DNA from: a virus | Length of the DNA: 35,720 bases | Virus record (IMG/VR): IMGVR_UViG_3300048837_001136 | Location: 1-35,720 of that record | Direction: 5' to 3' (one strand) | Shown: positions 3,054-28,649 of the stretch, in pieces | Numbering within the stretch: the first letter of the stretch is position 1 | Layout: each line of letters begins with the position of its first letter | Position numbers and translations under genes: made by a program | Notes under the pieces: generated by a model | Told to the model about the DNA's origin: nothing | What the model saw: the letters and a program-made list of their open reading frames with translations, nothing else | Database searches by the model: none

Positions 3054-5126
3054 TCATATAGGGTTAGGGAACGGTGCGCTAGGTGGTGTGAAGTTGGCGG
3101 TGTAGCGGGCTACGCCGCGAGTGATTCGGATGTCGTCTATCCAGCCCTGAACATTGCCCTGCGGAACGCCTGAATAAATCGCAGTGCCAATCCTAGAACG
3201 TGTGCCTTGTAGCGTGCCCGTACTGATATTCCCTGTAGCCTCTAGATTACCGTCCAAGAATATGCGAACGGTAGAACCAGAACGTGTGACAGCCGCGTGA
3301 TGCCACTCATTAAGAGTCACGGTAGTTGTACTACCTATCACGCCCATCGTGGGGTGAAATGCTATCAGCTTCTGTACGCTGGGGGCGATAGACTCAGGCA
3401 TACCAAACAAGAACCGCCCTGCGAAGCCCGACTCTCCAAAGTGGTACTGGCTGTACAGGTAAAACCCCCAACCGTCAGTAGTGTGGTATCTCTGTGGGTA
3501 GAACCACATCTCAATAGTGAAATCCTCGTCGTTGAGTAACGCGCTGTCAGCCGTTATGTAGTCATCGGTTCCGTCTAGGTAGAGAGAGGCTGTTCCAAAC
3601 TTTTTCTCGGCAGTGTCCAGATGTGCGTCGTTCGCCACTCCCCACGTGCGGGCGGGTATCTCATCAACCATCGTAGTACTTGCATCCGCTCCGTCAAAGT
3701 GCAGCAAAGATATCACATTATCGATAAATGGATCTGCATCTGGGGACGCCGATGGAGTCACTGTTGGAGTGACGGTGACAGATGGTGTTATAGATGGAGT
3801 AATTGTTGGAGTCATTGTTGGAGTCACTGTTGGAATGACAGTGGCAGATGGTGTTATAGATGGAGTTATAGATGGTGTTATAGAAGGTGTGATGGTTGGA
3901 GTCACTGTGACGGACGGTGTTATAGATGGGGTTATAGATGGAGTCACTGTGACGGACGGTGTTATAGATGGGGTTATAGATGGAGTCACTGTGACAGATG
4001 GGATTATAGATGGAGTTATAGAAGGTGTGATGGTTGGAGTCACTGTGACAGATGGGGTTATAGATGGTGTTATAGATGGTGTTATAGATGGTGTTATAGA
4101 TGGTGTTATAGATGGAGTCACTGTGACGGACGGTGTTATAGATGGGGTTATAGATGGGGTTATAGATGGAGTCGGGGTGATTGTTGGAGTTATAGAAAGG
4201 ATTCCATTAGTATTATACACCGGCTGGCGTATATCTATCAAAATATAATTTTCTGATAAAATTTTACCCAAATATTGATTAAATTTATTTTTTATGCTAG
4301 GAAATTTGGTTAACTGCCCATTATTCCCCAACCAAATCTCGGGCATATTTAAATTTAAGGAATTTGAATTTAAAACACCGTTGAATGCGACATAACACAA
4401 ATCACCCTTAGCACACGCATTTGCTGCCAAACCATGACATTCTTTTAGAATATCATTGGAATCCGCCAAAACAACTTCATCGTTTATTATATTGATTGGA
4501 TCTAAAAAATTTATGGGAACTTTAGCTTTATAAAATCTAGCTTTATTTAGAAATGAAAAAGCACACCCGTCTATAATAAAATTCGTATCCGTTTTAAATA
4601 TTTTAGTTTCTGATGCAATATTTAAATTATCTGCAGAAAAAATAAAAGATCCAGTATAATTAAGTTTGTCATATAAGCCAATCTGATCATTTTGGTTAAC
4701 ATATTCAATTTTATTGTTTAAAATGTTTGCGCAGAAAACTATACATGTTTCATTCCATTTTGAATTTTGGAATTTAAAAAATTTATTTTGCTTTGTGTTA
4801 AATATAATCTGATTAGATTTCGGGTTTTTTGGAAAACTTTTGCTTTTCAGAGAAACAAACGGATCGGATAAGGTGTAATTATATTCAAATTTTAAATTTT
4901 TCAAATTTAATTCCCAATAAATCCATATTCTCTGAGAAACATTTGGGAGAGTCCAATGAGATTCATTCGACTGCTTTTCTATCAATAGAAACTGCTGTCT
5001 ACCATGCAAAAAATTTACAAAAACATTATTTTTGTATGCATTAATAAAAACTTTATTTTGTTTCTTTACCAAAAAGTCACTAATAGAATTAGTTGTCGAA
5101 AATCCGTTTTTAAAAGTTATATTCAT
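3054..5126 (-). CDS. Tail fibre or adhesin: TPSI-repeat stalk and LamG-type lectin head
   Basis: This is a 690-residue mosaic protein. Residues 1-310 are Asn/Lys/Phe-rich, beta-type and unrecognised, probably the virion-anchoring part. Residues 311-464 are almost only Thr-Pro-Ser-Ile/Val units, an extended stalk. Residues 467-690 look like a concanavalin A/LamG-type jelly roll: VISLLHFDGADASTT, then FGTASLYLDGTDDYI, FTIEMWFYPQ, EWHHAAVTRSGSTVRIFLDG and IDDIRITRGVARYTANFTPP. These are signature strings of LamG-like domains in phage and marine bacterial surface proteins, which usually bind glycans. DNA of the head is much richer in G+C (39 of 60 bases at 3061-3120) than the rest, suggesting recent acquisition. 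A receptor-binding role is inferred. No ribosome site is obvious; AATAAATA motifs lie upstream. Confidence 0.8.
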   Translation of the reverse strand: MNITFKNGFSTTNSISDFLVKKQNKVFINAYKNNVFVNFLHGRQQFLLIEKQSNESHWTLPNVSQRIWIYWELNLKNLKFEYNYTLSDPFVSLKSKSFPKNPKSNQIIFNTKQNKFFKFQNSKWNETCIVFCANILNNKIEYVNQNDQIGLYDKLNYTGSFIFSADNLNIASETKIFKTDTNFIIDGCAFSFLNKARFYKAKVPINFLDPINIINDEVVLADSNDILKECHGLAANACAKGDLCYVAFNGVLNSNSLNLNMPEIWLGNNGQLTKFPSIKNKFNQYLGKILSENYILIDIRQPVYNTNGILSITPTITPTPSITPSITPSITPSVTVTPSITPSITPSITPSITPSITPSVTVTPTITPSITPSIIPSVTVTPSITPSITPSVTVTPSITPSITPSVTVTPTITPSITPSITPSITPSATVIPTVTPTMTPTITPSITPSVTVTPTVTPSASPDADPFIDNVISLLHFDGADASTTMVDEIPARTWGVANDAHLDTAEKKFGTASLYLDGTDDYITADSALLNDEDFTIEMWFYPQRYHTTDGWGFYLYSQYHFGESGFAGRFLFGMPESIAPSVQKLIAFHPTMGVIGSTTTVTLNEWHHAAVTRSGSTVRIFLDGNLEATGNISTGTLQGTRSRIGTAIYSGVPQGNVQGWIDDIRITRGVARYTANFTPPSAPFPNPI
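3735..4196 (-). repeat. Tandem 12-bp repeat array coding for the Thr-Pro-Ser-Ile stalk
   Basis: The DNA is built of degenerate 12-bp units, each coding TPSI, interspersed with units for TPSV-TVTP. It covers about 154 codons. Some blocks recur almost identically as 48-60-bp higher-order repeats, so slippage or recombination could change stalk length. The complement is also open in two frames, but those frames are artefacts of the repeat. Confidence 0.95.
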
Positions 5127-9547: not shown

Positions 9548-11182
9548 ATGACTAAAGATTTAAACGGACTTTTTGTTACAAAGCGGAATGGAAGCAAAGA
9601 ACTTTTTGATTTGGAAAAAATCCATACCATAGTAGAAAGAGCATGCATGGGAATTACTGGAGTATCTGTTTCCGATATTGAAATGAAAACACATTTAAAT
9701 TTCTATCAAAACATTTCTACAGCAGAGATAACAGAGGCATTGGTCAAATCATCCGCAGATTTGATCTCTGAAACATCGCCTAATTATCAGTATGTTGCGG
9801 CAAATTTACTTAATTATAATTTAAGAAAGGATGTATGGGGAAGCTCAGAACCTATTCACATTTATGATCATGTAGTTAAAATGGTGGAATTGGGATTCTA
9901 TACGCAAGAATTATTAGAAGCCTATTCAAAGGATGATTGGAATGTATTAAATCACTACATCGACCATGATAGGGACTTTAAATTCGCATATGTTGGCTTA
10001 CGTGAATATATTGACAAATATTGTGTTAGAGACAGATCTCTTAAAGATATTAAACCGCTTGAAACTCCACAAATAACTTATATGCTAATTGCTGCGACAA
10101 CATGCATGCAAGAAAAAAATATGAAGAAAATCAAGAGCTTGTATAATGATTTCTCTCAGTGGAACATTAGTCTACCTACTCCGATTATGGCAGGCTTGCG
10201 AACACCCACAAAGCAGTTTTCCAGTTGCACCGTTATATCTGTTGGTGACTCCCTTGATTCTTTAATTGCCGGATCTGGCGCGATTGTTAAATATGTTGCT
10301 AAAAAGGCTGGAATAGGATTAGATGCAACACGAATACGCGCCGAAGGATCGCCAGTAGGAAAGGAAAAGGGTATTAAGCATACCGGAGTTGTGCCATTTT
10401 TACGCATGTATGAAGGCGCGCTTAAATCTTGTTCACAGGGCGGCGTCCGTGGCGGATCAATGACCGTTCATTTACTTTTATGGCATAAAGAAATAGAAGA
10501 TCTTTTAGTCTTGAAAAATAATAAAGGAACTCCCGACTCCAGAGTGCGAAAGATGGATTATAGTATAGAAATCAATAATTATCTATACAATAGATTCATA
10601 CAAAAAAAGCCAATAACATTATTTTCTCCAAATCAAGTACCGGACTTATACGATGCTTTTTATTCGGATTCCGATAAGTTCGCCGAATTATATGAAAAAT
10701 ATGAGAAGGATGATTCCTTATTTAAGAAAACTGTAGACTCGGTACAATTGTTTACCGCACTTATGACAGAAAGAAAAGAAACTGGCCGCATTTATATTTT
10801 TAATACGGAAAATGCCAATAAATTCAAGCCATTTAAAGTTCCAGTAACAACTAGTAATTTATGCTTGGATGGGCAAACTATAGTTACTGTAACTATAGAT
10901 AACTCTAGTCCAGTAGACATAACTATGGAGGAAGTTAATGATTTATTTAATCATGGCAAGCAACTTTCAGTATTATCGAAAAACATACATACTGGAGAAA
11001 TAGTATTTTCTTCAATTCAAAATTCAGCACTTACAAATCCTAGTGCTGATGTTATAAAAATAACTGATGAAAAGTCTGGTAAAAGTATTATTTGCACACC
11101 AGAACATAAAGTGTTCACCGTAAATAGAGGATATGTGGAAGCTGCAAAATTAATGCAAGACGATATTTTGGATATACAATGA
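9548..11182 (+). CDS. nrdA: Ribonucleotide reductase large subunit, N-terminal part fused to N-intein
   Basis: This 544-residue gene product is the first half of a class Ia large subunit. Residues 1-438 are NrdA: ATP-cone start (VTKRNGSKELFDLEKIHTIV, about 10-29), SLPTPIMAGLRTPTKQFSSC (208-227) with the redox Cys, substrate-binding loops GGVRGGSMTVHL, and the end VPVTTSNL. At residue 439 the sequence switches to an intein: CLDGQTIVTVTID (block A) and ITDEKSGKSIICTPEHKVFT with the block B T-x-x-H, then it stops after DDILDIQ. Asn437 and the following cysteine match the E. coli active-site N437-L-C439 in position. The half has no catalytic cysteine of its own unless spliced to the product of 11962-13077. 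Ribosome site: AGAAGAGGAAAAA. The pair is the reductase of this phage, making dNDPs. Confidence 0.95.
   Translation: MTKDLNGLFVTKRNGSKELFDLEKIHTIVERACMGITGVSVSDIEMKTHLNFYQNISTAEITEALVKSSADLISETSPNYQYVAANLLNYNLRKDVWGSSEPIHIYDHVVKMVELGFYTQELLEAYSKDDWNVLNHYIDHDRDFKFAYVGLREYIDKYCVRDRSLKDIKPLETPQITYMLIAATTCMQEKNMKKIKSLYNDFSQWNISLPTPIMAGLRTPTKQFSSCTVISVGDSLDSLIAGSGAIVKYVAKKAGIGLDATRIRAEGSPVGKEKGIKHTGVVPFLRMYEGALKSCSQGGVRGGSMTVHLLLWHKEIEDLLVLKNNKGTPDSRVRKMDYSIEINNYLYNRFIQKKPITLFSPNQVPDLYDAFYSDSDKFAELYEKYEKDDSLFKKTVDSVQLFTALMTERKETGRIYIFNTENANKFKPFKVPVTTSNLCLDGQTIVTVTIDNSSPVDITMEEVNDLFNHGKQLSVLSKNIHTGEIVFSSIQNSALTNPSADVIKITDEKSGKSIICTPEHKVFTVNRGYVEAAKLMQDDILDIQ
10862..11179 (+). mobile_element. Split intein, N-terminal half (106 residues)
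   Basis: It starts with Cys (codon 10862-10864) directly after SNL of NrdA and runs to the stop. Block A is CLDGQTIVTV and block B contains CTPEHKVFTVNRGYV with the Thr and His expected of a self-splicing intein. The sequence is similar, as I remember it, to the metagenomic split intein NrdA-2. It contains a 21-bp near-perfect palindrome at 10878-10898. Confidence 0.93.
10878..10898. repeat. 21-bp palindrome in the N-intein coding sequence
   Basis: CTATAGTTAC, a central T, then the exact reverse complement. As RNA it would form a 9-bp stem with a 3-nt loop. It starts 16 nt after the splice junction codon. Confidence 0.85.
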
Positions 11183-11183
11183 A

Positions 11184-11969
11184 ATGTTGGTAAAAAAATT
11201 TCATTATAATAAATATAGAAATAATTTGAGAAATTTTTCTATGGACAAAATCTATAAAGTTTATAAAATAACTAACAATATAAACAAAAATGTATATTTT
11301 GGTTATACATCCAAGTCCGTTATAGAAAGGTTTAAAAAACATGCACTAAATGCTGCACATGGAATTGATTCGTATCTATACAGAGCTATAAGAAAACATG
11401 GCATAACTAATTTTTCATGTATTCAGCTAAAGTCATTCACCAACAAGAAAGAAGCATTAGAATGTGAGAAAAAACTTATAATGGAATATTCCGATACTAA
11501 TACTTTATATAATATATCTTCAGGTGGTACTGGAGGGTTTGTAGTTCCAAAAGACAAAATGAATAAGTGGAAAGAGAGTATCAAGGTTAGAACACAACAT
11601 TCGGATAATCCAAATTTTTCCGGGTTCTCAGATCAAGAACTAGTAGACATAGCATGCGAATATTTTAAATCTATTGGATACATCGCAGGTAGCAAAGTAT
11701 GGGCAAGATTTGCTAAAGAGAATGGATACCCGCAAACTTTCTCTAAAAATCGTTTTGGTGGAAAGTATGATAATTTCGCAAAACGAGTTCAAGAAAAAAC
11801 TAATCTAACATACGCCAAACATCGAAAAAGTGAAGACCATAAACAAAAGCTCAGAGAATGCAGTAAATCAAAGGCATGGGTCACCGATGGTAGTATTAGC
11901 AAATATATAAACAAAAATGAATTAGATTTATACATTAAAAAAGGATTTAGAAGAGGCAGACATGCTTAA
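11184..11969 (+). CDS. GIY-YIG homing endonuclease between the intein halves
   Basis: The protein has 261 residues from this ATG. The ATG at 11241 (242 residues) fits the domain border better and may be the real start. The N-terminal domain has YKVYKITN, VYFGYTSKSVIERFKKH and a conserved Glu in KKEALECEKKLIMEY: the GIY-YIG nuclease core, with the first motif degenerate (KVY). The C-terminal part carries DNA-binding modules, ending in KAWVTDGSISKYINKNELDL and GFRRGR, a typical phage homing-endonuclease tail. It starts 1 nt after the stop of the N-intein and overlaps the C-intein gene by 8 nt. The ribosome site is weak compared with its neighbours, as is common for homing endonucleases. It presumably cuts intein-free nrdA and spreads the whole insert. 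Confidence 0.88.
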   Translation: MLVKKFHYNKYRNNLRNFSMDKIYKVYKITNNINKNVYFGYTSKSVIERFKKHALNAAHGIDSYLYRAIRKHGITNFSCIQLKSFTNKKEALECEKKLIMEYSDTNTLYNISSGGTGGFVVPKDKMNKWKESIKVRTQHSDNPNFSGFSDQELVDIACEYFKSIGYIAGSKVWARFAKENGYPQTFSKNRFGGKYDNFAKRVQEKTNLTYAKHRKSEDHKQKLRECSKSKAWVTDGSISKYINKNELDLYIKKGFRRGRHA

Positions 11970-12060
11970 AATAGAAAAAATTACAAATAAACATGAAGTA
12001 TATGATATAACCGTTAGCATAACAAATAATTTTTATGCTAACGGAATTCTAGTGCATAAT
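11962..12060 (+). mobile_element. Split intein, C-terminal half (33 residues)
   Basis: Residues 1-33 of the second nrdA gene form blocks F and G: VYDITVSITNNFYANGILVH then Asn33. The next residue, Cys34, begins the C-extein (CQEILLP). Penultimate His and terminal Asn are present, so trans-splicing chemistry looks intact. A perfect 12-bp inverted repeat (12011-12044) lies inside it. Confidence 0.93.
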
Positions 12061-13077
12061 TGCCAAGAAATCCTCTTGCCAACCACGCCACTTATGAGTC
12101 TTGAAGATGACCAAAATTTAATTTCTTTATGTACATTACTTGCAATCAATTTAGGTAATATAAGAAATTTTGATGAGCTTGAATCTCAATGCAAAAATGC
12201 AGTTCTCGCTCTAGATAATTTATTAGATTATCAAGACTATATGGTTCCTGCAGCAAAAACTGCAACTGCATTATATAGGCCATTAGGGATAGGTGTTATA
12301 AATCTTGCATACTATCTTGCCAAAAACGGAGTGGATTATCAATCTCCAGAAGGTTGGAAATTGATTGATGAAACAATGGAAGCAATTAATTATTATTGTA
12401 TCAAAGCCTCCATTGAACTTGCTGCAGAAAGAGGACCATGTGCTGGATATAAAAATACTAAATGGGCACAAGGTCTTTTACCTATCGATTACTATAAACC
12501 AACGATTGATGAAATAGTAAAATTTAACCCTAAGCAAAACTGGGAATGGTTGCGAGAGATGCTAAAAATTCATGGCATAAGAAATGCTACTTTAACAGCT
12601 TTCATGCCAGCAGAATCCAGTGCAAAAATTTCTAACGCAACAAGCGGAGTAGACCCTATCCGCGCTCTTGTTACTATTAAGAAAAATAAAACTAGTATAA
12701 CAAAACAGGTTGTTCCGGAAATTAACAGATTAAAAAATAAATTTGATCAACTTTGGGAAATGCAGTCCATGGACGGGATGATTAAATCTATGGCAATAAT
12801 TAATAGATTGTGCTCTCAATCTATATCTACCAACTTAAGCTATAATCCAGCACATTATCCTAATGGGGAAATTCCTCAATCGGTAATGATTAAAGATTTA
12901 CTTAAAGCGAACTACTATGGCCTACCAACTTTATATTATCACAATACACGTGACGGTAGAGAAGACGCGATAGTAGAAGATGCCCCAAATACTCAACCAA
13001 CTAATGAAAGTGTTGCAGAAAACTCACAACCAGAGTATAATGTAGAAGAAGATACATGTTCTTCTTGTACTATATAG
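11962..13077 (+). CDS. nrdA: Ribonucleotide reductase large subunit, C-terminal part fused to C-intein
   Basis: This 371-residue product has a 33-residue C-intein followed by the C-terminal 338 residues of NrdA. After splicing the junction reads SNL-CQEILLPTTP, restoring the catalytic Asn-x-Cys-x-Glu; the first C-extein residue is therefore also the thiyl-radical cysteine. Downstream are ATLTAFMPAESSAKISNATS (the phosphate-binding region) and a C-terminal redox pair in EEDTCSSCTI (C366, C369) for reduction by thioredoxin or glutaredoxin. Spliced NrdA would be 776 residues, against 761 in E. coli. It has a strong ribosome site (AGAAGAGG), so it is translated independently. Its start lies inside the end of the endonuclease gene. 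Confidence 0.95.
   Translation: MLKIEKITNKHEVYDITVSITNNFYANGILVHNCQEILLPTTPLMSLEDDQNLISLCTLLAINLGNIRNFDELESQCKNAVLALDNLLDYQDYMVPAAKTATALYRPLGIGVINLAYYLAKNGVDYQSPEGWKLIDETMEAINYYCIKASIELAAERGPCAGYKNTKWAQGLLPIDYYKPTIDEIVKFNPKQNWEWLREMLKIHGIRNATLTAFMPAESSAKISNATSGVDPIRALVTIKKNKTSITKQVVPEINRLKNKFDQLWEMQSMDGMIKSMAIINRLCSQSISTNLSYNPAHYPNGEIPQSVMIKDLLKANYYGLPTLYYHNTRDGREDAIVEDAPNTQPTNESVAENSQPEYNVEEDTCSSCTI
12011..12044. repeat. 12-bp perfect inverted repeat in the C-intein
   Basis: CCGTTAGCATAA at 12011-12022 pairs with 12033-12044 across a 10-nt loop. It is wholly coding (residues 17-28 of the gene product). No T-run follows, so it is not a normal terminator. Confidence 0.85.
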
Positions 13078-14844: not shown

Positions 14845-16641
14845 ATGAATTGTAAATTTGATGAATTATTACTATGCCTTAAAAAAATAAATTATGAAGA
14901 AAATCCAAGAATTCTTCTTCTGAAAGAACATAAAGAATTAGTAAATCAAATAAAAGAAGCTACAAGTTTTTTGGATTCGTCTTTTAAAAAAATTGAATGT
15001 GCTCAACGTGTTTGGCACATTCTACACTCATCACATAACATTCAAAAATGTGCAGTTTGTAAGCAAAATTCTGTATTATGGGACAAAAGAAATAGAAGTT
15101 ACTTTAATACTTGTAGTAAAAAGTGCAGTGCAGCCGATCCTGATAGGATTAAAAAATATAAATCTACGATGCTAAAAACTTATGGCGTGGAGAATCCTTC
15201 GCATAGCGATGAAATATTACTCAAAAAAGCTGAAAATTATAAAGAGAGTTACTCGGATACTAAGAATAAAGAAATAGTTCAAAAACGATTTGATACTATT
15301 TGTGATCGATATAATGTCGATTCTATTTCGGACTTTTATAATTCTGAACAAAGGATTGCTAAAATAAAGCAAACATGTAAACAAAAATATGGAGTAGAAA
15401 CATATTTATTGCACCCGGAAATCGACAAAATATTTAAAATTAAATATGGAGTAGATAAAATTAATTTTATTCAACAAAAAGCCAAAGAATCTATTATAGA
15501 AAAATATAGCACGGATAATATATTTCTGCTCGATCATATTAAAGAGATACGAATTAAAAATATTAGAAAAAAAGAGTTTAATAAAAGATTAAAAAACAAC
15601 GAGTTTGCATATCCTCTTTTTAGTGAGGATACGTATTCTGGAATTTCGTCAAAGTCTAAAACATTATGGAAATGCAAAAATTGCTTAAATGACTTTACGG
15701 ATATTTTACACAGTTCGCGAACACTCCCACTATGTCCCTATTGTACAAAAAAAGGAATTTCTAACTTCGAAAAAGAAGTTAGAAATTTTGTAATTGAGTT
15801 ACTAGAAGGTACTACGAACATAAGTTTTAATGATAGAAGTATTTTGAACGGAAAAGAAATTGATATTCTCGTAGATAATAAAATAGGAATAGAATTAAAT
15901 GGGGCGTATTGGCATTCTGAGTTAGCTGGAAAGAGAGATAAAAATTATCACTATAATAAAACTAGATTGGCGGCTTATAAAAATATAGACCTTTTTCATA
16001 TATGGGATTTTGAATGGAATAATAAAAAGGAAATATGTAAATCTTATCTATCTTCCATGTTCGGTAAAAATGAAAAAATTTTTGCAAGGAAATGCAAAAT
16101 AATTAAAATTACAAAATCTGAAGCTGCCAATTTTTTTACCAACACACATTTTCAAGGATTCAATAAATCGTTGAACACAGAAAACTTTGGATTGGTTTTT
16201 AATGATGAATTAGCTGCTTGCATTAGTTTTACAAAATCTAGATTTGATAGTAACTCTCAAGTTGAAATATATCGATTTAGCAACAAGTTATACTCAAATG
16301 TAATTGGTGGTTTCGGTAAGCTGCTTAAATATTACATAGATAAGCAAAATCCAGAATCTATCGTATCGTATTGCGATTTGTCAAAATTTAAAGGAACAAT
16401 TTATAAAAAATTTGGGATGCAGCACTCACATAATTCATCTCCAAATTATTTTTACACACAAAATTACATTCGTTTTTATTCAAGGCATAAATTTCAAAAA
16501 CACAAATTAAAGAACAATTTATTAAATTTTTGTGAAACAATGACAGAATGGGAAAACATGATGCAAAATGGATTTGATAGAATATGGGATTGCGGTAATG
16601 CCGTATTTGAATATAAATATAATAAAAAGGATTCTTTATGA
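14845..16641 (+). CDS. Large free-standing homing endonuclease, Vsr-like EDxHD type
   Basis: The protein has 598 residues. The N-terminal half holds a zinc cluster (C69, C72, C90, C94) and repeated modules of the type KTYGVENPSHSDEI, KQKYGVETYLLHPEI, KYGVDKINFIQQ and KYSTDNIFLLDHI, typical DNA-recognition repeats of phage homing enzymes. A second zinc-ribbon is C277, C280, C297, C300. The nuclease core is about 332-392: KEIDILVDNKIGIELNGAYW then HS, and LFHIWDFEW, giving the Glu/Asp/His/Asp arrangement of the Vsr-like EDxHD enzymes known from split-intein 'fractured genes'. The C-terminal part (about 410-598) is another conserved domain. It starts 2 nt after nrdB with no ribosome site. Its last codons contain a late promoter for the next gene. 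Confidence 0.85.
   Translation: MNCKFDELLLCLKKINYEENPRILLLKEHKELVNQIKEATSFLDSSFKKIECAQRVWHILHSSHNIQKCAVCKQNSVLWDKRNRSYFNTCSKKCSAADPDRIKKYKSTMLKTYGVENPSHSDEILLKKAENYKESYSDTKNKEIVQKRFDTICDRYNVDSISDFYNSEQRIAKIKQTCKQKYGVETYLLHPEIDKIFKIKYGVDKINFIQQKAKESIIEKYSTDNIFLLDHIKEIRIKNIRKKEFNKRLKNNEFAYPLFSEDTYSGISSKSKTLWKCKNCLNDFTDILHSSRTLPLCPYCTKKGISNFEKEVRNFVIELLEGTTNISFNDRSILNGKEIDILVDNKIGIELNGAYWHSELAGKRDKNYHYNKTRLAAYKNIDLFHIWDFEWNNKKEICKSYLSSMFGKNEKIFARKCKIIKITKSEAANFFTNTHFQGFNKSLNTENFGLVFNDELAACISFTKSRFDSNSQVEIYRFSNKLYSNVIGGFGKLLKYYIDKQNPESIVSYCDLSKFKGTIYKKFGMQHSHNSSPNYFYTQNYIRFYSRHKFQKHKLKNNLLNFCETMTEWENMMQNGFDRIWDCGNAVFEYKYNKKDSL
15756..15787. repeat. 13-bp perfect inverted repeat in the EDxHD endonuclease gene
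   Basis: AATTTCTAACTTC at 15756-15768 pairs with 15775-15787 across a 6-nt loop of mostly A. It lies in coding sequence just before the nuclease core. Only a weak T-run follows. Confidence 0.85.
16612..16619 (+). promoter_or_regulatory. Late promoter TATAAATA inside the end of the endonuclease gene
   Basis: An exact T4 late octamer lies 18 nt before the ATG at 16638. The inferred transcript would start about 16625 and carry AAGGAT as its ribosome site. The same bases code for the last residues of the endonuclease. Confidence 0.55.
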
Positions 16642-24057: not shown

Positions 24058-24453
24058 ATGAAAATTCAAATAAACTCTTATATTTCAGAAGCGATTCAAA
24101 GCTCTGCACGAGAATTAGCCAATCCAAAAAACATCACTAGAAAACAGATTCTAGAAAATACGGATGTATTTTCTCTTTCAAATGAGTATTTTCTATGTTT
24201 GATGCACCATTATCTCAACTTTGGTGGCAAGCAGTCTGCTACAATGAAGGCATTTGTAAATTCTTGGTATACAGCGCACGACAATGACGAAAATGTATCA
24301 GAGTGCATTCAGGATGGAGGGAATTATAATGGAACAACTCATATGCAAATAATCAAAAAGTTCCACCCAAAACTTCAAAAGAACATTCAGCAGGCTTTTG
24401 CTCTAAAGCTAATTACTCTCGACCAAGAATATATGGTGCTGGAAGATGCTTAA
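24058..24453 (+). CDS. Protein of unknown function
   Basis: The protein has 131 residues with a good AGGA ribosome site. It is mostly helical: ISEAIQSSARELANPKNITR, then FSLSNEYFLCLMHHYLNFGG, SATMKAFVNSWYTAHDND and MQIIKKFHPKLQKNIQQAF. No family is recognised. It is 19 nt after the acetyltransferase and its 3' end overlaps the convergent peptidase gene by 41 nt. Confidence 0.55.
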   Translation: MKIQINSYISEAIQSSARELANPKNITRKQILENTDVFSLSNEYFLCLMHHYLNFGGKQSATMKAFVNSWYTAHDNDENVSECIQDGGNYNGTTHMQIIKKFHPKLQKNIQQAFALKLITLDQEYMVLEDA

Positions 24454-26113
24454 AATCCGGCACGAAAGATAATACTCTTTCTTCGGCGATACAGGCTTCT
24501 CCCCCATTTTCAAGTAATTTTTCGAAATCCGAAAAGGAAATGTACGCGAAGCCTTTCTTGCCCCATCGCTTTCCCCAACTATTCTTTATTCTGAAAAATT
24601 CTCCATCGACATCAACTCCGTTGATCACATATGCGTGCCCACCTTGCCCTGCTCCAGAAGGCTTCATAAATCCGTTAGCATTAGGTCTAGTCATGTTTGC
24701 ATACCAACGAGTGCCCACAACCATTGGACCTTTCATTAAAATGGTGTTAACCATGTCATCTACAGTTTTGGCCCATCTATACTCTGAAATTACTCCTAAT
24801 TTTTTAAGAATTTTAGCTGCCGCTCTAACAGAAGTTCCGTTGTAAGAATTTCCAGTAAAAAATATCTTTCCGTTTCTTCTTGCCAAGAACGTTCCGCATG
24901 TAGTAGTGGGGCACCACACTGTTTGATTTGGGAGAGATTCTGTTTTGAATGTTCTTAAATCTATAGCATTGGACGTTCTTAATCCCCAAGTCTCCTGAAT
25001 TTGTTCACTATTTTTAGTATTATTGGTGTATAGCTTTTGAGTAGTTCTACTTATATTTACGCCCAATAATGTACATGCTAATATAAAACAATCTAAAACA
25101 TTCCCGGTTTTTGTATTTTGATGAAATAATTTTCTCTCTTTCCTGTTTGATTTAGTATTGGAATGAATGATCGATCCATCTCCTAAAATACATTCATCTA
25201 TAAAAAGTTTCAATTGATTTTCAGTTAAACGATGTATAAAATTTAAATCAACAATTTTTTCATTTGAAACTAATTCTCTTATTTTTTTTGCTATATCACC
25301 ACCAAACTCACATATAAAAATCGGCTTTTTTAGTTTATTATTCCAATAGCCACCGTGTATTCCATTTAGATGTAAAACTTCTTGTAATCTGGATGAATAC
25401 TTCTGCTGTGATATAGCAATAGAATTTCGCTTTCTCTTCGATTTACGTAAATGACCCTCAGTCAAAACCCATGCCATTAATAGAACGAATTCATCTGTAT
25501 ACATGGGATTTTCCGGTAAGTTATCATTTTTTGCGGAAATCATAAATTCATGTGCCGAATTTAATTCATTGGTCTTAACTAATTTAAATGGGGTTTTATT
25601 TATTCTGTTCCTAACAACCCAATTATGGTTTTCGGTAACTACTATATCCCATGTGGAATTGAACATTCTTACTACTGGAGCATTTTCAAATATATTAACA
25701 TTTTGAACTAATCCCCATTTTGCCGTTTGGGTTTCCAAGTCTAGACAATAAATTTCTTCATTTATTTGCAATTCATCATATTTTTTCCACCCATTTTTTG
25801 TTAAACATTCTGTAGCCGTATCTACACACTCGCCTTCCCATTGATCCCGTTTTTGGCATGCATCATAAAATTCAGCAGGATTAAATAAAGGAACGGATCT
25901 ATTTTCTATAAAATTTTGTTTAACTGGACCATCCTCAATCCAGTGCAACCAACTGTAGCATACGCATTGGCTAGTAGTTCCTTGATCACCCCACCACCCC
26001 TCTGCATCCCAGAACTTGTTGCGTATTATAGGGGATTCGGTCAATATTGCTGATACTAGGAAGTCATTGTCTCTTACATCGGGTGATTCTATGCGTCCAA
26101 ACTGTCTTTTCAT
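24413..26113 (-). CDS. Papain-like cysteine peptidase (C1 family) interrupted by an intein
   Basis: The precursor has 566 residues; after removal of the 327-residue intein a 239-residue peptidase remains. N-extein (1-95): IESPDVRDNDF recalls the D-x-RD start of bacterial C1 enzymes, and WGDQGTTSQCVCYSWLHW (42-59) has the oxyanion Gln44 and catalytic Cys50 in papain spacing (Q-x5-C). C-extein (423-566): SYNGTSVRAAAKILKKLG, the catalytic His493 in GQGGHAYVINGV and Asn511 in FRIKNSWGKRWG. The joined site WEGE-SYNGTSV reads naturally for the family. The intein therefore separates Cys50 from His/Asn, and the precursor should be inactive. A late promoter lies upstream, and GGAAT may serve as ribosome site. 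The target is unknown; a head-maturation or host-directed role is speculation. Confidence 0.9.
   Translation of the reverse strand: MKRQFGRIESPDVRDNDFLVSAILTESPIIRNKFWDAEGWWGDQGTTSQCVCYSWLHWIEDGPVKQNFIENRSVPLFNPAEFYDACQKRDQWEGECVDTATECLTKNGWKKYDELQINEEIYCLDLETQTAKWGLVQNVNIFENAPVVRMFNSTWDIVVTENHNWVVRNRINKTPFKLVKTNELNSAHEFMISAKNDNLPENPMYTDEFVLLMAWVLTEGHLRKSKRKRNSIAISQQKYSSRLQEVLHLNGIHGGYWNNKLKKPIFICEFGGDIAKKIRELVSNEKIVDLNFIHRLTENQLKLFIDECILGDGSIIHSNTKSNRKERKLFHQNTKTGNVLDCFILACTLLGVNISRTTQKLYTNNTKNSEQIQETWGLRTSNAIDLRTFKTESLPNQTVWCPTTTCGTFLARRNGKIFFTGNSYNGTSVRAAAKILKKLGVISEYRWAKTVDDMVNTILMKGPMVVGTRWYANMTRPNANGFMKPSGAGQGGHAYVINGVDVDGEFFRIKNSWGKRWGKKGFAYISFSDFEKLLENGGEACIAEERVLSFVPDFKHLPAPYILGRE
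24848..25828 (-). mobile_element. LAGLIDADG intein in the cysteine peptidase
   Basis: Residues 96-422 of the precursor. Block A: CVDTATECLTKNGWKKYDEL, starting with Cys96. Block B: VVTENHNWVVR with Thr160 and His163. Two LAGLIDADG-type motifs: LLMAWVLTEGH (211-221) and LKLFIDECILGDGSI (301-315). Block F/G: VWCPTTTCGTFLARRNGKIF then FTGN, with Asn422 and Ser423 as +1 residue. The penultimate residue is Gly, not His, as in several phage inteins ending TGN-S. All splice residues look present, so it is probably active both as splicer and as endonuclease. Confidence 0.93.
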
Positions 26114-26172: not shown

Positions 26173-26982
26173 ATGAAAGCTTTAATATACAGTGATTTAC
26201 ACCTAGATTTTTCCAATTACCAGATAACTAAAAATGTGCAGGATGAAGAAGATACTGTGCTAGTTTTGGCTGGGGATATATGTGTAGCAAAAAAACCAAA
26301 TACATTTTCCGATTTTCTGCAGCAGCTTACGCAAAGAAAGTTCAAACATATTTTTCACGTGTACGGAAATCATGAGCATTACAGAGGTTCTATAGTTCGT
26401 ACAGACGACAAAATAAAGGAACAGTATGCAACTTTTGAAATAAAAAATGTAAGCTGCGGAGACATGTTTTATACAGTTTTGGATGGAGTTGCATTTACTG
26501 GTGCTACGCTTTGGACGAGCATGAATAATGACGATTGGTTTGTTAAACATGCAGCAAAAGATCGCATGAATGATTATAGTGTGATAAGAAGCGGCTCCAA
26601 ATTAGACCCATACGCAAGAAAGCTATCTGTAAACGAAACTATAACATTCAATCATAAACATTTTGAATTCATAAAATTCAAAACAGAATTAGCTAACCAA
26701 AGCGGTCTGAAAAATGTGGTGATAACACACCATGCTCCAAGTTTTAAGTCCCAAGCCGGAAGATTTTCGGAACAATTGCTAGATCATTGTTATTATAACA
26801 ACTATGATAATTATATATGCGATTCAAGTATAAAACTTTGGATTCATGGACATACTCATGAATCTGTTGATTATACTATAAACGAATGTAGAATTGTTTC
26901 AAATCCAAGAGGTTACAACTATAGAACGGATTCCAAGCAAGGGAACCCTGATTTTATAGATGATTTTATTATTCAGATTTAA
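26173..26982 (+). CDS. Metallophosphoesterase (calcineurin-like)
   Basis: The protein has 269 residues from ATG 26173 (AAGG ribosome site); longer in-frame starts run into the divergent gene. Ligands follow the family order: D8 and H10 (YSDLHLDF), D35 (LAGDI), N66-H67 (YGNHEHY), ITHHAPS, and WIHGHTHES. The long insertion between the two halves (about 75-185) is helical. It differs clearly from the phosphoesterase in the reductase operon, so it is not a recent duplicate. The substrate is unknown. The 3' end overlaps the convergent gene by 14 nt. Confidence 0.88.
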   Translation: MKALIYSDLHLDFSNYQITKNVQDEEDTVLVLAGDICVAKKPNTFSDFLQQLTQRKFKHIFHVYGNHEHYRGSIVRTDDKIKEQYATFEIKNVSCGDMFYTVLDGVAFTGATLWTSMNNDDWFVKHAAKDRMNDYSVIRSGSKLDPYARKLSVNETITFNHKHFEFIKFKTELANQSGLKNVVITHHAPSFKSQAGRFSEQLLDHCYYNNYDNYICDSSIKLWIHGHTHESVDYTINECRIVSNPRGYNYRTDSKQGNPDFIDDFIIQI

Positions 26983-27914: not shown

Positions 27915-28649
27915 TTATTGATATAATACATCTGTGATACAACTTCTATTTTGTAAAAATTGAGGATTTGTTAAAATTTCTTCGGAACTATAATTGACTA
28001 GAGTACCAAATTTATGTACATCATCTACTGAATTTTCCCAAGACAATTCATCGTCTGAAAGGCGTTGAAGCAATTCGTTATTAGATATTCCTTTAATTTT
28101 TGCCGGACCATAAACACTTCTGGCATACTGCTGAATTGAATTTCTCTTACAGTCGCTCTGCCTCCAAATGAAATAGTTAACTACTTCCGGTTTAGGAATT
28201 AGGAAAAATCTAGAATCAAATAATGCCAAATCTGTTTTTGAAGATTCTTTCTTGAGTAAAAAACCTGAAGGTCGTGTATATATTGAGTTAAAATATGCGG
28301 TAGCCATTGCAGCAGAAACTGATATAATTTTATTAACTTTTCCGCCGAAAAATACTTCAGAGTTAATCGAAGATCTATCTAATAAAATGGATATTTCATC
28401 CGAAAATACATATGCTAACTTTGCTGACTGAATTTCATTCAACAGATATTTTGTTGTAAGAATCATTGCATCAGAAAAATCTTTATCAAACGGCTTTTCA
28501 CAATTCGATGTAAAGTTTTTGAAAGCCTTCCCATCTACTCTAATAATTCCGGGAGCAATATTAGTAGAAACTCTGCGTTCATAACACTCTTCATACATTT
28601 TCATTCTATCGCCTAGCGACATTTGGGGAGATTCTGGGTGTTCAGTCAT
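27915..28649 (-). CDS. thg1: Thg1-like tRNA(His) guanylyltransferase
   Basis: The protein has 244 residues. Thg1 enzymes add nucleotides to tRNA 5' ends in the 3'-to-5' direction; bacterial and phage-type Thg1-like proteins repair 5'-truncated tRNAs. Marks are SLGDRMKMYEECYERR (11-26), GIIRVDGKAFKNFT (34-47) with metal-binding Asp39, YVFSDEISILLD (80-91) with Asp84-Glu85, then SAAMATAYFN, FDSRFFLIPKPEVVNYFIWR and KRNSIQQYARSVYG. All three metal carboxylates are kept. A strong early promoter (28679-28707) and an AAGGA site precede it. It fits the set of RNA-repair genes in this half of the window. Confidence 0.92.
   Translation of the reverse strand: MTEHPESPQMSLGDRMKMYEECYERRVSTNIAPGIIRVDGKAFKNFTSNCEKPFDKDFSDAMILTTKYLLNEIQSAKLAYVFSDEISILLDRSSINSEVFFGGKVNKIISVSAAMATAYFNSIYTRPSGFLLKKESSKTDLALFDSRFFLIPKPEVVNYFIWRQSDCKRNSIQQYARSVYGPAKIKGISNNELLQRLSDDELSWENSVDDVHKFGTLVNYSSEEILTNPQFLQNRSCITDVLYQ

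What the first reader, a model, noticed from the sequence alone, without database searches (positions are those of the whole stretch)
24413..26113. Intein inside a papain-like protease, splitting the catalytic triad
Phage inteins usually lie in DNA polymerase, helicase, terminase or reductase genes. Here a LAGLIDADG intein lies in a C1 peptidase between Cys50 and His493/Asn511, directly before the conserved S-Y-N-G-T-S-V segment. The precursor cannot be an active protease until splicing, so the intein may act as a zymogen switch that delays a toxic protease in the cell. I know of no well-described case.
Basis: partly seen in the sequence, partly recalled or inferred. Interest (0 to 1): 0.8.

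Follow-up and report, generated by a model that had tools for sequence, protein, structure and literature searches.

The report
Intein inside a phage papain-like protease
A bacterial virus gene for a papain-like protease is interrupted by a complete self-splicing, self-copying protein element (an intein); the element and the site are real and this host gene was not seen with one before in my searches, but nothing indicates that the intein works as a timed off-switch for the protease rather than as an ordinary selfish insert.

Summary
The minus-strand ORF 26113..24413 (566 aa) is a phage C1 (papain-family) peptidase with a 327-aa LAGLIDADG intein at residues 96-422, between catalytic Cys50 and His493/Asn511. 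Spliced in silico, the 239-aa protein aligns end to end with inteinless peptidases of jumbo phages XacN1 and RAS14 (47-50% identity); a 60% identical relative predicts as a papain fold. The intein predicts as HINT plus LAGLIDADG. Its relatives (80 fetched, of at least 175) sit in portal, terminase, late sigma and other phage genes; none of 57 scanned is a peptidase, and none of 103 distinct relatives of this peptidase carries an intein. So: a new host protein for a known kind of element. The zymogen-switch reading is unsupported. The insertion is not conserved, the site is a length-variable loop (the precursor need not be dead), and the Gly-Asn terminus is a clade trait, not a defect. Inteins in other proteases (ClpP) are known.

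The parts
24413..26113 (-). Whole precursor ORF, 566 aa: C1 peptidase interrupted by an intein
   Evidence: PHROG 16701 and Pfam PF00112
25829..26113 (-). N-extein, residues 1-95 (oxyanion-hole Gln44, catalytic Cys50)
   Evidence: alignment to XacN1/RAS14/Circinus/GX15bay peptidases; Gln44 and Cys50 65/65 in distinct relatives
24848..25828 (-). Intein, residues 96-422, 327 aa: Cys1, block B T-E-N-H-N-W, LAGLIDADG homing endonuclease, block F V-W-C, end F-F-T-G-N
   Evidence: AlphaFold2 pLDDT 91.6; Foldseek to TliVMA/PI-SceI/PI-PfuI
24413..24847 (-). C-extein, residues 423-566 (+1 Ser423, invariant Gly426, catalytic His493, Asn511), incl. stop codon
25826..25828 (-). Cys96 = intein Cys1 (class 1 nucleophile position)
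   Evidence: C in 80/80 intein relatives
25619..25621 (-). Trp165 = block B position 12, first residue of the WCT triplet
   Evidence: W in 70/80 relatives; position definitions from PMC3196547
24911..24913 (-). Cys401 = block F position 4, second residue of WCT
   Evidence: C in 80/80 relatives, though one search pattern included W-C
24848..24856 (-). Thr420-Gly421-Asn422: third residue of WCT, atypical penultimate Gly, terminal Asn
   Evidence: T 80/80, G 76/80, N 80/80
26173..26982 (+). Divergently transcribed metallophosphoesterase; same neighbour and orientation in XacN1, RAS14 and L045 (supports orthology of the peptidase)

Best explanation
A mobile LAGLIDADG intein has homed into the C1-peptidase gene of a jumbo-phage relative. 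The gene is translated as a 566-aa precursor; the HINT domain folds, cleaves at Glu95|Cys96, transfers the N-extein to Ser423, cyclises Asn422, and releases the intein and a 239-aa peptidase with a Glu95-Ser joint. The central LAGLIDADG domain presumably cuts inteinless alleles at the same site so that repair copies the intein in. Splicing is expected to be constitutive; the intein persists because it is removed cleanly and can home, not because it regulates the protease. Shown by sequence: borders, intact splicing and endonuclease motifs, empty sites in relatives, predicted folds. Inferred: that it splices, that the endonuclease cuts, that the spliced peptidase is active. Because Cys1 is invariant in the clade, I expect the class 1 route (Cys96 attacks first), with Cys401/Trp165/Thr420 as a class-3-like active site whose role is untested.
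For: Exact intein borders shared with inteins in portal, TerL, gp55-like and other phage genes. Uninterrupted peptidase homologues with the empty site, e.g. Circinus PGE|SYDGTSV, the 60% identical L086 PGE|NYSGTSV, and 103 distinct relatives, none with an intein. All splicing residues kept (Cys1, Thr/His of block B, Asn422, Ser+1) and both acidic residues in the two LAGLIDADG motifs. High-confidence HINT plus endonuclease model. Scattered host genes across the clade: portals, terminases, late sigma factors, DnaB, DNA polymerase, methylases, thymidylate synthase. Closest inteins in the tree, L099 and L129, sit in portal genes, consistent with a jump from another gene. The +1 residue is Ser in 12 of 103 uninvaded relatives but usually Asn (61), which fits co-conversion or choice of a splicing-competent allele (idea discussed in PMC11855218).
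Against: No experiment shows splicing, homing or proteolysis. Only one example exists in the searched data, so homing between alleles cannot be seen directly. The window intein is on a long branch (2.33) and its nearest relative is only about 35% identical, so its recent source is unknown. Extein GC is 42% against 31% for the intein and 33% for the window: the intein matches the genome better than the peptidase does, so it may have been resident for long.
Confidence: 0.9

Rival explanations
1. Zymogen switch: slow or signal-dependent splicing keeps a harmful protease inactive until late infection, and this has been selected.
For: The intein lies between catalytic Cys50 and His493/Asn511, 3 residues before an invariant Gly that by ungapped comparison matches papain Gly65 beside the substrate cleft (inference). 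Conditional splicing is documented for other inteins (PMC10663303; PMC6195587, listed).
Against: 0 of 103 distinct relatives have the insertion, so the family does without it. The site is a loop that varies in length and is coil between two helices in the L086 model, so a precursor could fold around the intein. Penultimate Gly is normal for the clade and is the fast form in the one tested Gly-Asn class 1 phage intein. No evidence that the protease is toxic.
Confidence: 0.06
2. The intein splices by the class 3 route: Cys401 (block F:4), not Cys96, makes the first attack; Cys1 is a leftover or auxiliary.
For: Full WCT triplet Trp165, Cys401, Thr420 and Ser at +1, as in class 3 inteins. The closest solved intein by profile is the class 3 AceL NrdHF intein (E=1.6e-6).
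Against: Class 3 is defined by absence of a nucleophile/Cys at position 1; Cys1 is 80/80 in the clade, +1 is Cys in 5 of 80, and B:12 is Phe or Val in 10 of 80. Class 1 inteins with Cys at F:4 are known. The AceL match covers only the N-terminal part.
Confidence: 0.2
3. The insert is a dead or non-splicing domain, so that the gene is a pseudogene or the protease works with the insert in place.
For: Length-variable loop tolerates insertions; an inactive intein pseudogene is known (PMC3196547).
Against: Every splicing residue and both endonuclease acids are kept, no frameshift or stop, catalytic Gln/Cys/His/Asn of the extein kept.
Confidence: 0.04

Closest known systems
LAGLIDADG inteins of phage portal/terminase/gp55-like genes (e.g. 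Gordonia phages Hail2Pitt, Belphegor, GMA3; Mycobacterium phage Pinkcreek gp135; Synechococcus phage B23)
   Same: Same domain order, borders and end motif [VLI]-W-C-P-[TS]...T-G-N; 23-35% identity over the whole intein
   Different: Host is a C1 peptidase; sequence on a long separate branch with L099/L129 (portal)
Class 1 inteins with penultimate Gly, e.g. Bethlehem gp51 RDF intein (PMC5050341)
   Same: Cys1, Gly-Asn end
   Different: RDF intein is experimentally shown to splice; its relationship to this clade was not tested here
Class 3 inteins (Mch DnaB1, AceL NrdHF, Catera gp206)
   Same: Trp B:12, Cys F:4, Thr G:5, Ser/Thr +1
   Different: Class 3 lacks the nucleophile at position 1; here Cys1 is invariant
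ClpP intein of Chlamydomonas eugametos chloroplast and other ClpP inteins (PMC5784728, PMC1635734)
   Same: An intein inside a protease; also ends in Gly-Asn
   Different: Serine peptidase of a different fold, cellular/organelle gene
Phage C1 peptidases of PHROG 16701 (XacN1 ORF382, RAS14 WAX21594, Circinus gp80)
   Same: Whole extein, catalytic residues; divergent metallophosphoesterase neighbour in XacN1 and RAS14
   Different: None carries an intein

Membership tests
Intein (any class) | In-frame insertion with an exact empty site in homologues | tested here: met
Intein (any class) | HINT fold and splicing blocks A, B, F, G | tested here: met
   (prediction)
Intein (any class) | Protein splicing | not testable with these tools
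   needs expression
Class 1 intein | Cys/Ser at position 1 and Cys/Ser/Thr at +1 | tested here: met
   Cys96, Ser423; Cys1 80/80 in clade
Class 3 intein | Trp-Cys-Thr triplet at B:12, F:4, G:5 | tested here: met
   Trp165, Cys401, Thr420 (definition)
Class 3 intein | No nucleophile (Cys) at position 1 | tested here: not met
   Cys96; definition
LAGLIDADG homing endonuclease | Two motifs with acidic residues and the endonuclease fold | tested here: met
   intein Glu124 (E/D in 78/80) and Asp217 (D in 79/80); Foldseek matches PI-SceI, PI-PfuI, I-DmoI
LAGLIDADG homing endonuclease | DNA cleavage of the empty allele | not testable with these tools
   needs an in vitro cleavage assay
C1 (papain) peptidase | Gln, Cys, His, Asn of the active site in order | tested here: met
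   Gln44, Cys50 and His493 65/65, Asn511 63/65 in distinct relatives
C1 (papain) peptidase | Papain fold | tested here: met
C1 (papain) peptidase | Proteolytic activity | not testable with these tools
   needs an activity assay
Intein-controlled zymogen | Insertion kept in relatives as part of enzyme control | tested here: not met
   0 of 103 distinct relatives
Intein-controlled zymogen | Inactive precursor and delayed or conditional splicing | not testable with these tools
   needs expression and activity assays

The most novel reading that the evidence does not exclude
Splicing of this intein is delayed or conditional in infected cells and serves as a natural zymogen switch for a phage papain-like protease, possibly by a dual-nucleophile (Cys96 plus Cys401) site intermediate between class 1 and class 3.
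Probability: 0.05. Interest if true: 0.8.

Novelty: new member of a known kind. Interest (0 to 1): 0.35.

Why it matters
It adds a papain-like protease to the proteins invaded by inteins and gives a clean test object: a protease whose activity reports splicing. The clade around it (at least 175 loci in the viral collection; 80 fetched, all with Cys1 and the Cys F:4/Thr G:5 pair, 70 with the whole WCT triplet) is a natural place to ask which of two candidate nucleophiles starts splicing and how class 3 inteins could have arisen from class 1. For the peptidase itself the intein probably changes little.

Tried and rejected
Whole precursor or intein alone as a single-sequence query in the viral collection: no relatives; alignments were needed. 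Pfam finds no domain in the intein alone. phmmer of the intein against PDB found only a chance hit. Partial hits starting near the insertion site in DrLupo, Funsized, Shaeky and Zenteno07 suggested more inteins; the genes are uninterrupted. Contig L063 starts a few codons before the site; it is a contig end, not an intein. Sinorhizobium/Priestia C1 peptidase hits reaching into the intein half were read as chance extensions and not pursued. The genome-collection scan gave one bacterial relative, uninterrupted. I first took the WCT triplet as proof of class 3; rejected as proof because Cys1 is invariant and +1 Cys occurs. Paper searches for inteins with peptidase C1 or cysteine protease in phages found no prior report; the library lacks subscription papers.

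Full report
CHECK OF THE OBSERVATION. The window is a 35,720-base virus record on its own. The minus-strand ORF 26113..24413 encodes 566 aa. The segment 96-422 begins C-V-D-T-A-T-E-C-L-T-K-N-G-W and ends F-F-T-G-N, followed by Ser423. tblastn of the precursor against 50,697 phage records gives two kinds of hit: flanks only, to uninterrupted 'papain family cysteine protease' genes (XacN1, RAS14, CM1), and residues about 96-423 only, to inteins in TerL, portal and other genes of Gordonia, Mycobacterium and cyanobacterial phages. The joined flanks align as one 239-aa protein to XacN1 (47.8%, E 5e-65) and RAS14 (49.5%), with the catalytic Gln44, Cys50, His166 and Asn184 (spliced numbering) conserved.

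THE PEPTIDASE. PHROG 16701 'peptidase' E 2e-60, Pfam Peptidase_C1 E 2e-7 for the joined flanks. AlphaFold2 of the closest relative, L086 (60% identical), gives pLDDT 92.4 and matches xylellain (3ois), then cathepsins and other papain-fold proteases. The neighbour at 26173-26982 is a metallophosphoesterase, divergently oriented, exactly as in XacN1, RAS14 and L045; XacN1 and RAS14 also share the RNR genes and several others with the window. So the host gene belongs to a real, syntenic jumbo-phage lineage. What the protease does in infection is unknown; nothing here shows it to be toxic.

THE INSERTION SITE. In 65 distinct full-length sequences (window included) Gly99 (spliced), 3 residues after the first C-extein residue, is invariant, followed by Thr/Ser-Ser/Thr; by ungapped comparison from the conserved Gly113 it falls on papain Gly65 at the edge of the substrate cleft (the papain numbering is my inference). 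The joint itself is in a loop: coil between helices 78-88 and 101-111 in the L086 model, and several relatives (e.g. L048, L053, L055, L066) have extra residues there. The +1 residue is Asn in 61 of 103 distinct uninvaded relatives and Ser in 12. An intein needs Ser, Thr or Cys there, so the invaded allele either had Ser or acquired it with the intein; the same has been discussed for another phage insertion (PMC11855218).

HOW RARE. Across all loci fetched, 158 peptidase loci (103 distinct proteins; some contigs were fetched twice) read straight through the site and none has this intein. One caution: the A7 scan kept the best 80 of 179, which could favour uninterrupted genes; the A1 scan kept all 74 confirmed. 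Conversely, 80 intein relatives were fetched (175 confirmed). Of 57 distinct hosts scanned, PHROGs give portal, terminase large subunit, late sigma factor, virion protein, thymidylate synthase, DNA polymerase, DnaB, methyltransferase; phrog_16701 is matched by the window alone.

THE INTEIN. Aligned with 80 relatives: Cys1 80/80, block B Thr 76 and His 80, B:12 Trp 70 (Phe 8, Val 2), F:4 Cys 80, G:5 Thr 80, penultimate Gly 76, final Asn 80, first endonuclease acid E/D 78, second D 79. One of the two search patterns contained W-C, so F:4 conservation is partly by selection; Cys1 and T-G-N were not in the patterns. The model (pLDDT 91.6) matches whole LAGLIDADG inteins TliVMA, PI-SceI and PI-PfuI. 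In the tree it sits with L099 and L129, both in portal genes, on a long branch with support 81/91.

CLASS. Class 3 inteins have Trp B:12, Cys F:4, Thr G:5 and no nucleophile at position 1, with Cys F:4 attacking first (PMC3196547; PMC7891396). This intein has all three plus Cys1. By the published definition it is not class 3. Invariance of Cys1, and +1 Cys in five relatives, point to class 1; gp41-1, a class 1 intein, also has Thr at the G:5 position (PMC7664689), and class 1 inteins with Cys at F:4 are known. But sequence cannot settle which Cys starts the reaction. The consequence for the proposed experiment is concrete: a Cys96 mutant alone is not a safe splice-dead control; Cys401, Asn422 and Ser423 must be included.

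THE SWITCH IDEA. The only support is position. Against it: absent from all relatives; loop site; clade-wide T-G-N end, and in the one tested phage class 1 intein with Gly-Asn the wild type splices completely at time zero while the His mutant needs more than 5 h for half (PMC5050341). Inteins are known in proteases: ClpP of green algae and bacteria (PMC5784728, PMC1635734), so 'intein in a protease' is not new, while a papain-like host has no report in the open-access library. Conditional splicing does exist for other inteins, so the idea is not impossible; I give it about 5%.

VERDICT. A real, well-formed, probably constitutively splicing LAGLIDADG intein in a new host protein: new member of a known kind, moderate interest.

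Noticed in passing
window 9548-13077 (+): nrdA is in two pieces joined by what looks like a naturally split intein: 9548-11182 (NrdA-N plus intein N part), 11184-11969 (free-standing GIY-YIG endonuclease ORF), 11962-13077 (intein C part ending I-L-V-H-N|C plus NrdA-C). Pfam Intein_splicing covers profile positions 11-92 and 125-155. Fits the 'fractured gene' arrangement; a second intein system in the same 36 kb.
   Followed up: partly
window 14845-16641 (+): 598-aa ORF directly behind nrdB with Pfam DUF7487 only; its middle reads like a Vsr/EDxHD-type homing endonuclease (my reading, not tested).
   Followed up: no
L099-L178 (intein relatives): A large phage intein clade combines invariant Cys1 with Cys F:4 and Thr G:5, in most members the full class 3 WCT triplet, and ends T-G-N; commonest hosts are portal, terminase and T4 gp55-like late sigma genes.
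   Followed up: partly
window 24413-24847 and 25829-26113: The peptidase exteins have 42% G+C, the intein 31%, the window 33%; most other genes are 27-39%.
   Followed up: partly
L019, L023, L024, L092: Peptidase relatives appear to be the C-terminal part of a longer protein with an upstream F-[DN]-P-D-C-P-D-C segment, perhaps a virion-linked form.
   Followed up: no
window residue Cys52 of the ORF: The residue two after catalytic Cys50 is Cys, where 63 of 65 sequences have Gly or Ala.
   Followed up: no
window 3054-5126 (-): 690-aa ORF with a long I-T-P-S/T-V-T repeat tract and a C-terminal lectin-like segment; similar P-T-P-T tracts stand beside the peptidase in L092.
   Followed up: no
window 27915-28649 (-): tRNA-His guanylyltransferase (Thg1) homologue in the phage, Pfam E 1.5e-26.
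   Followed up: no
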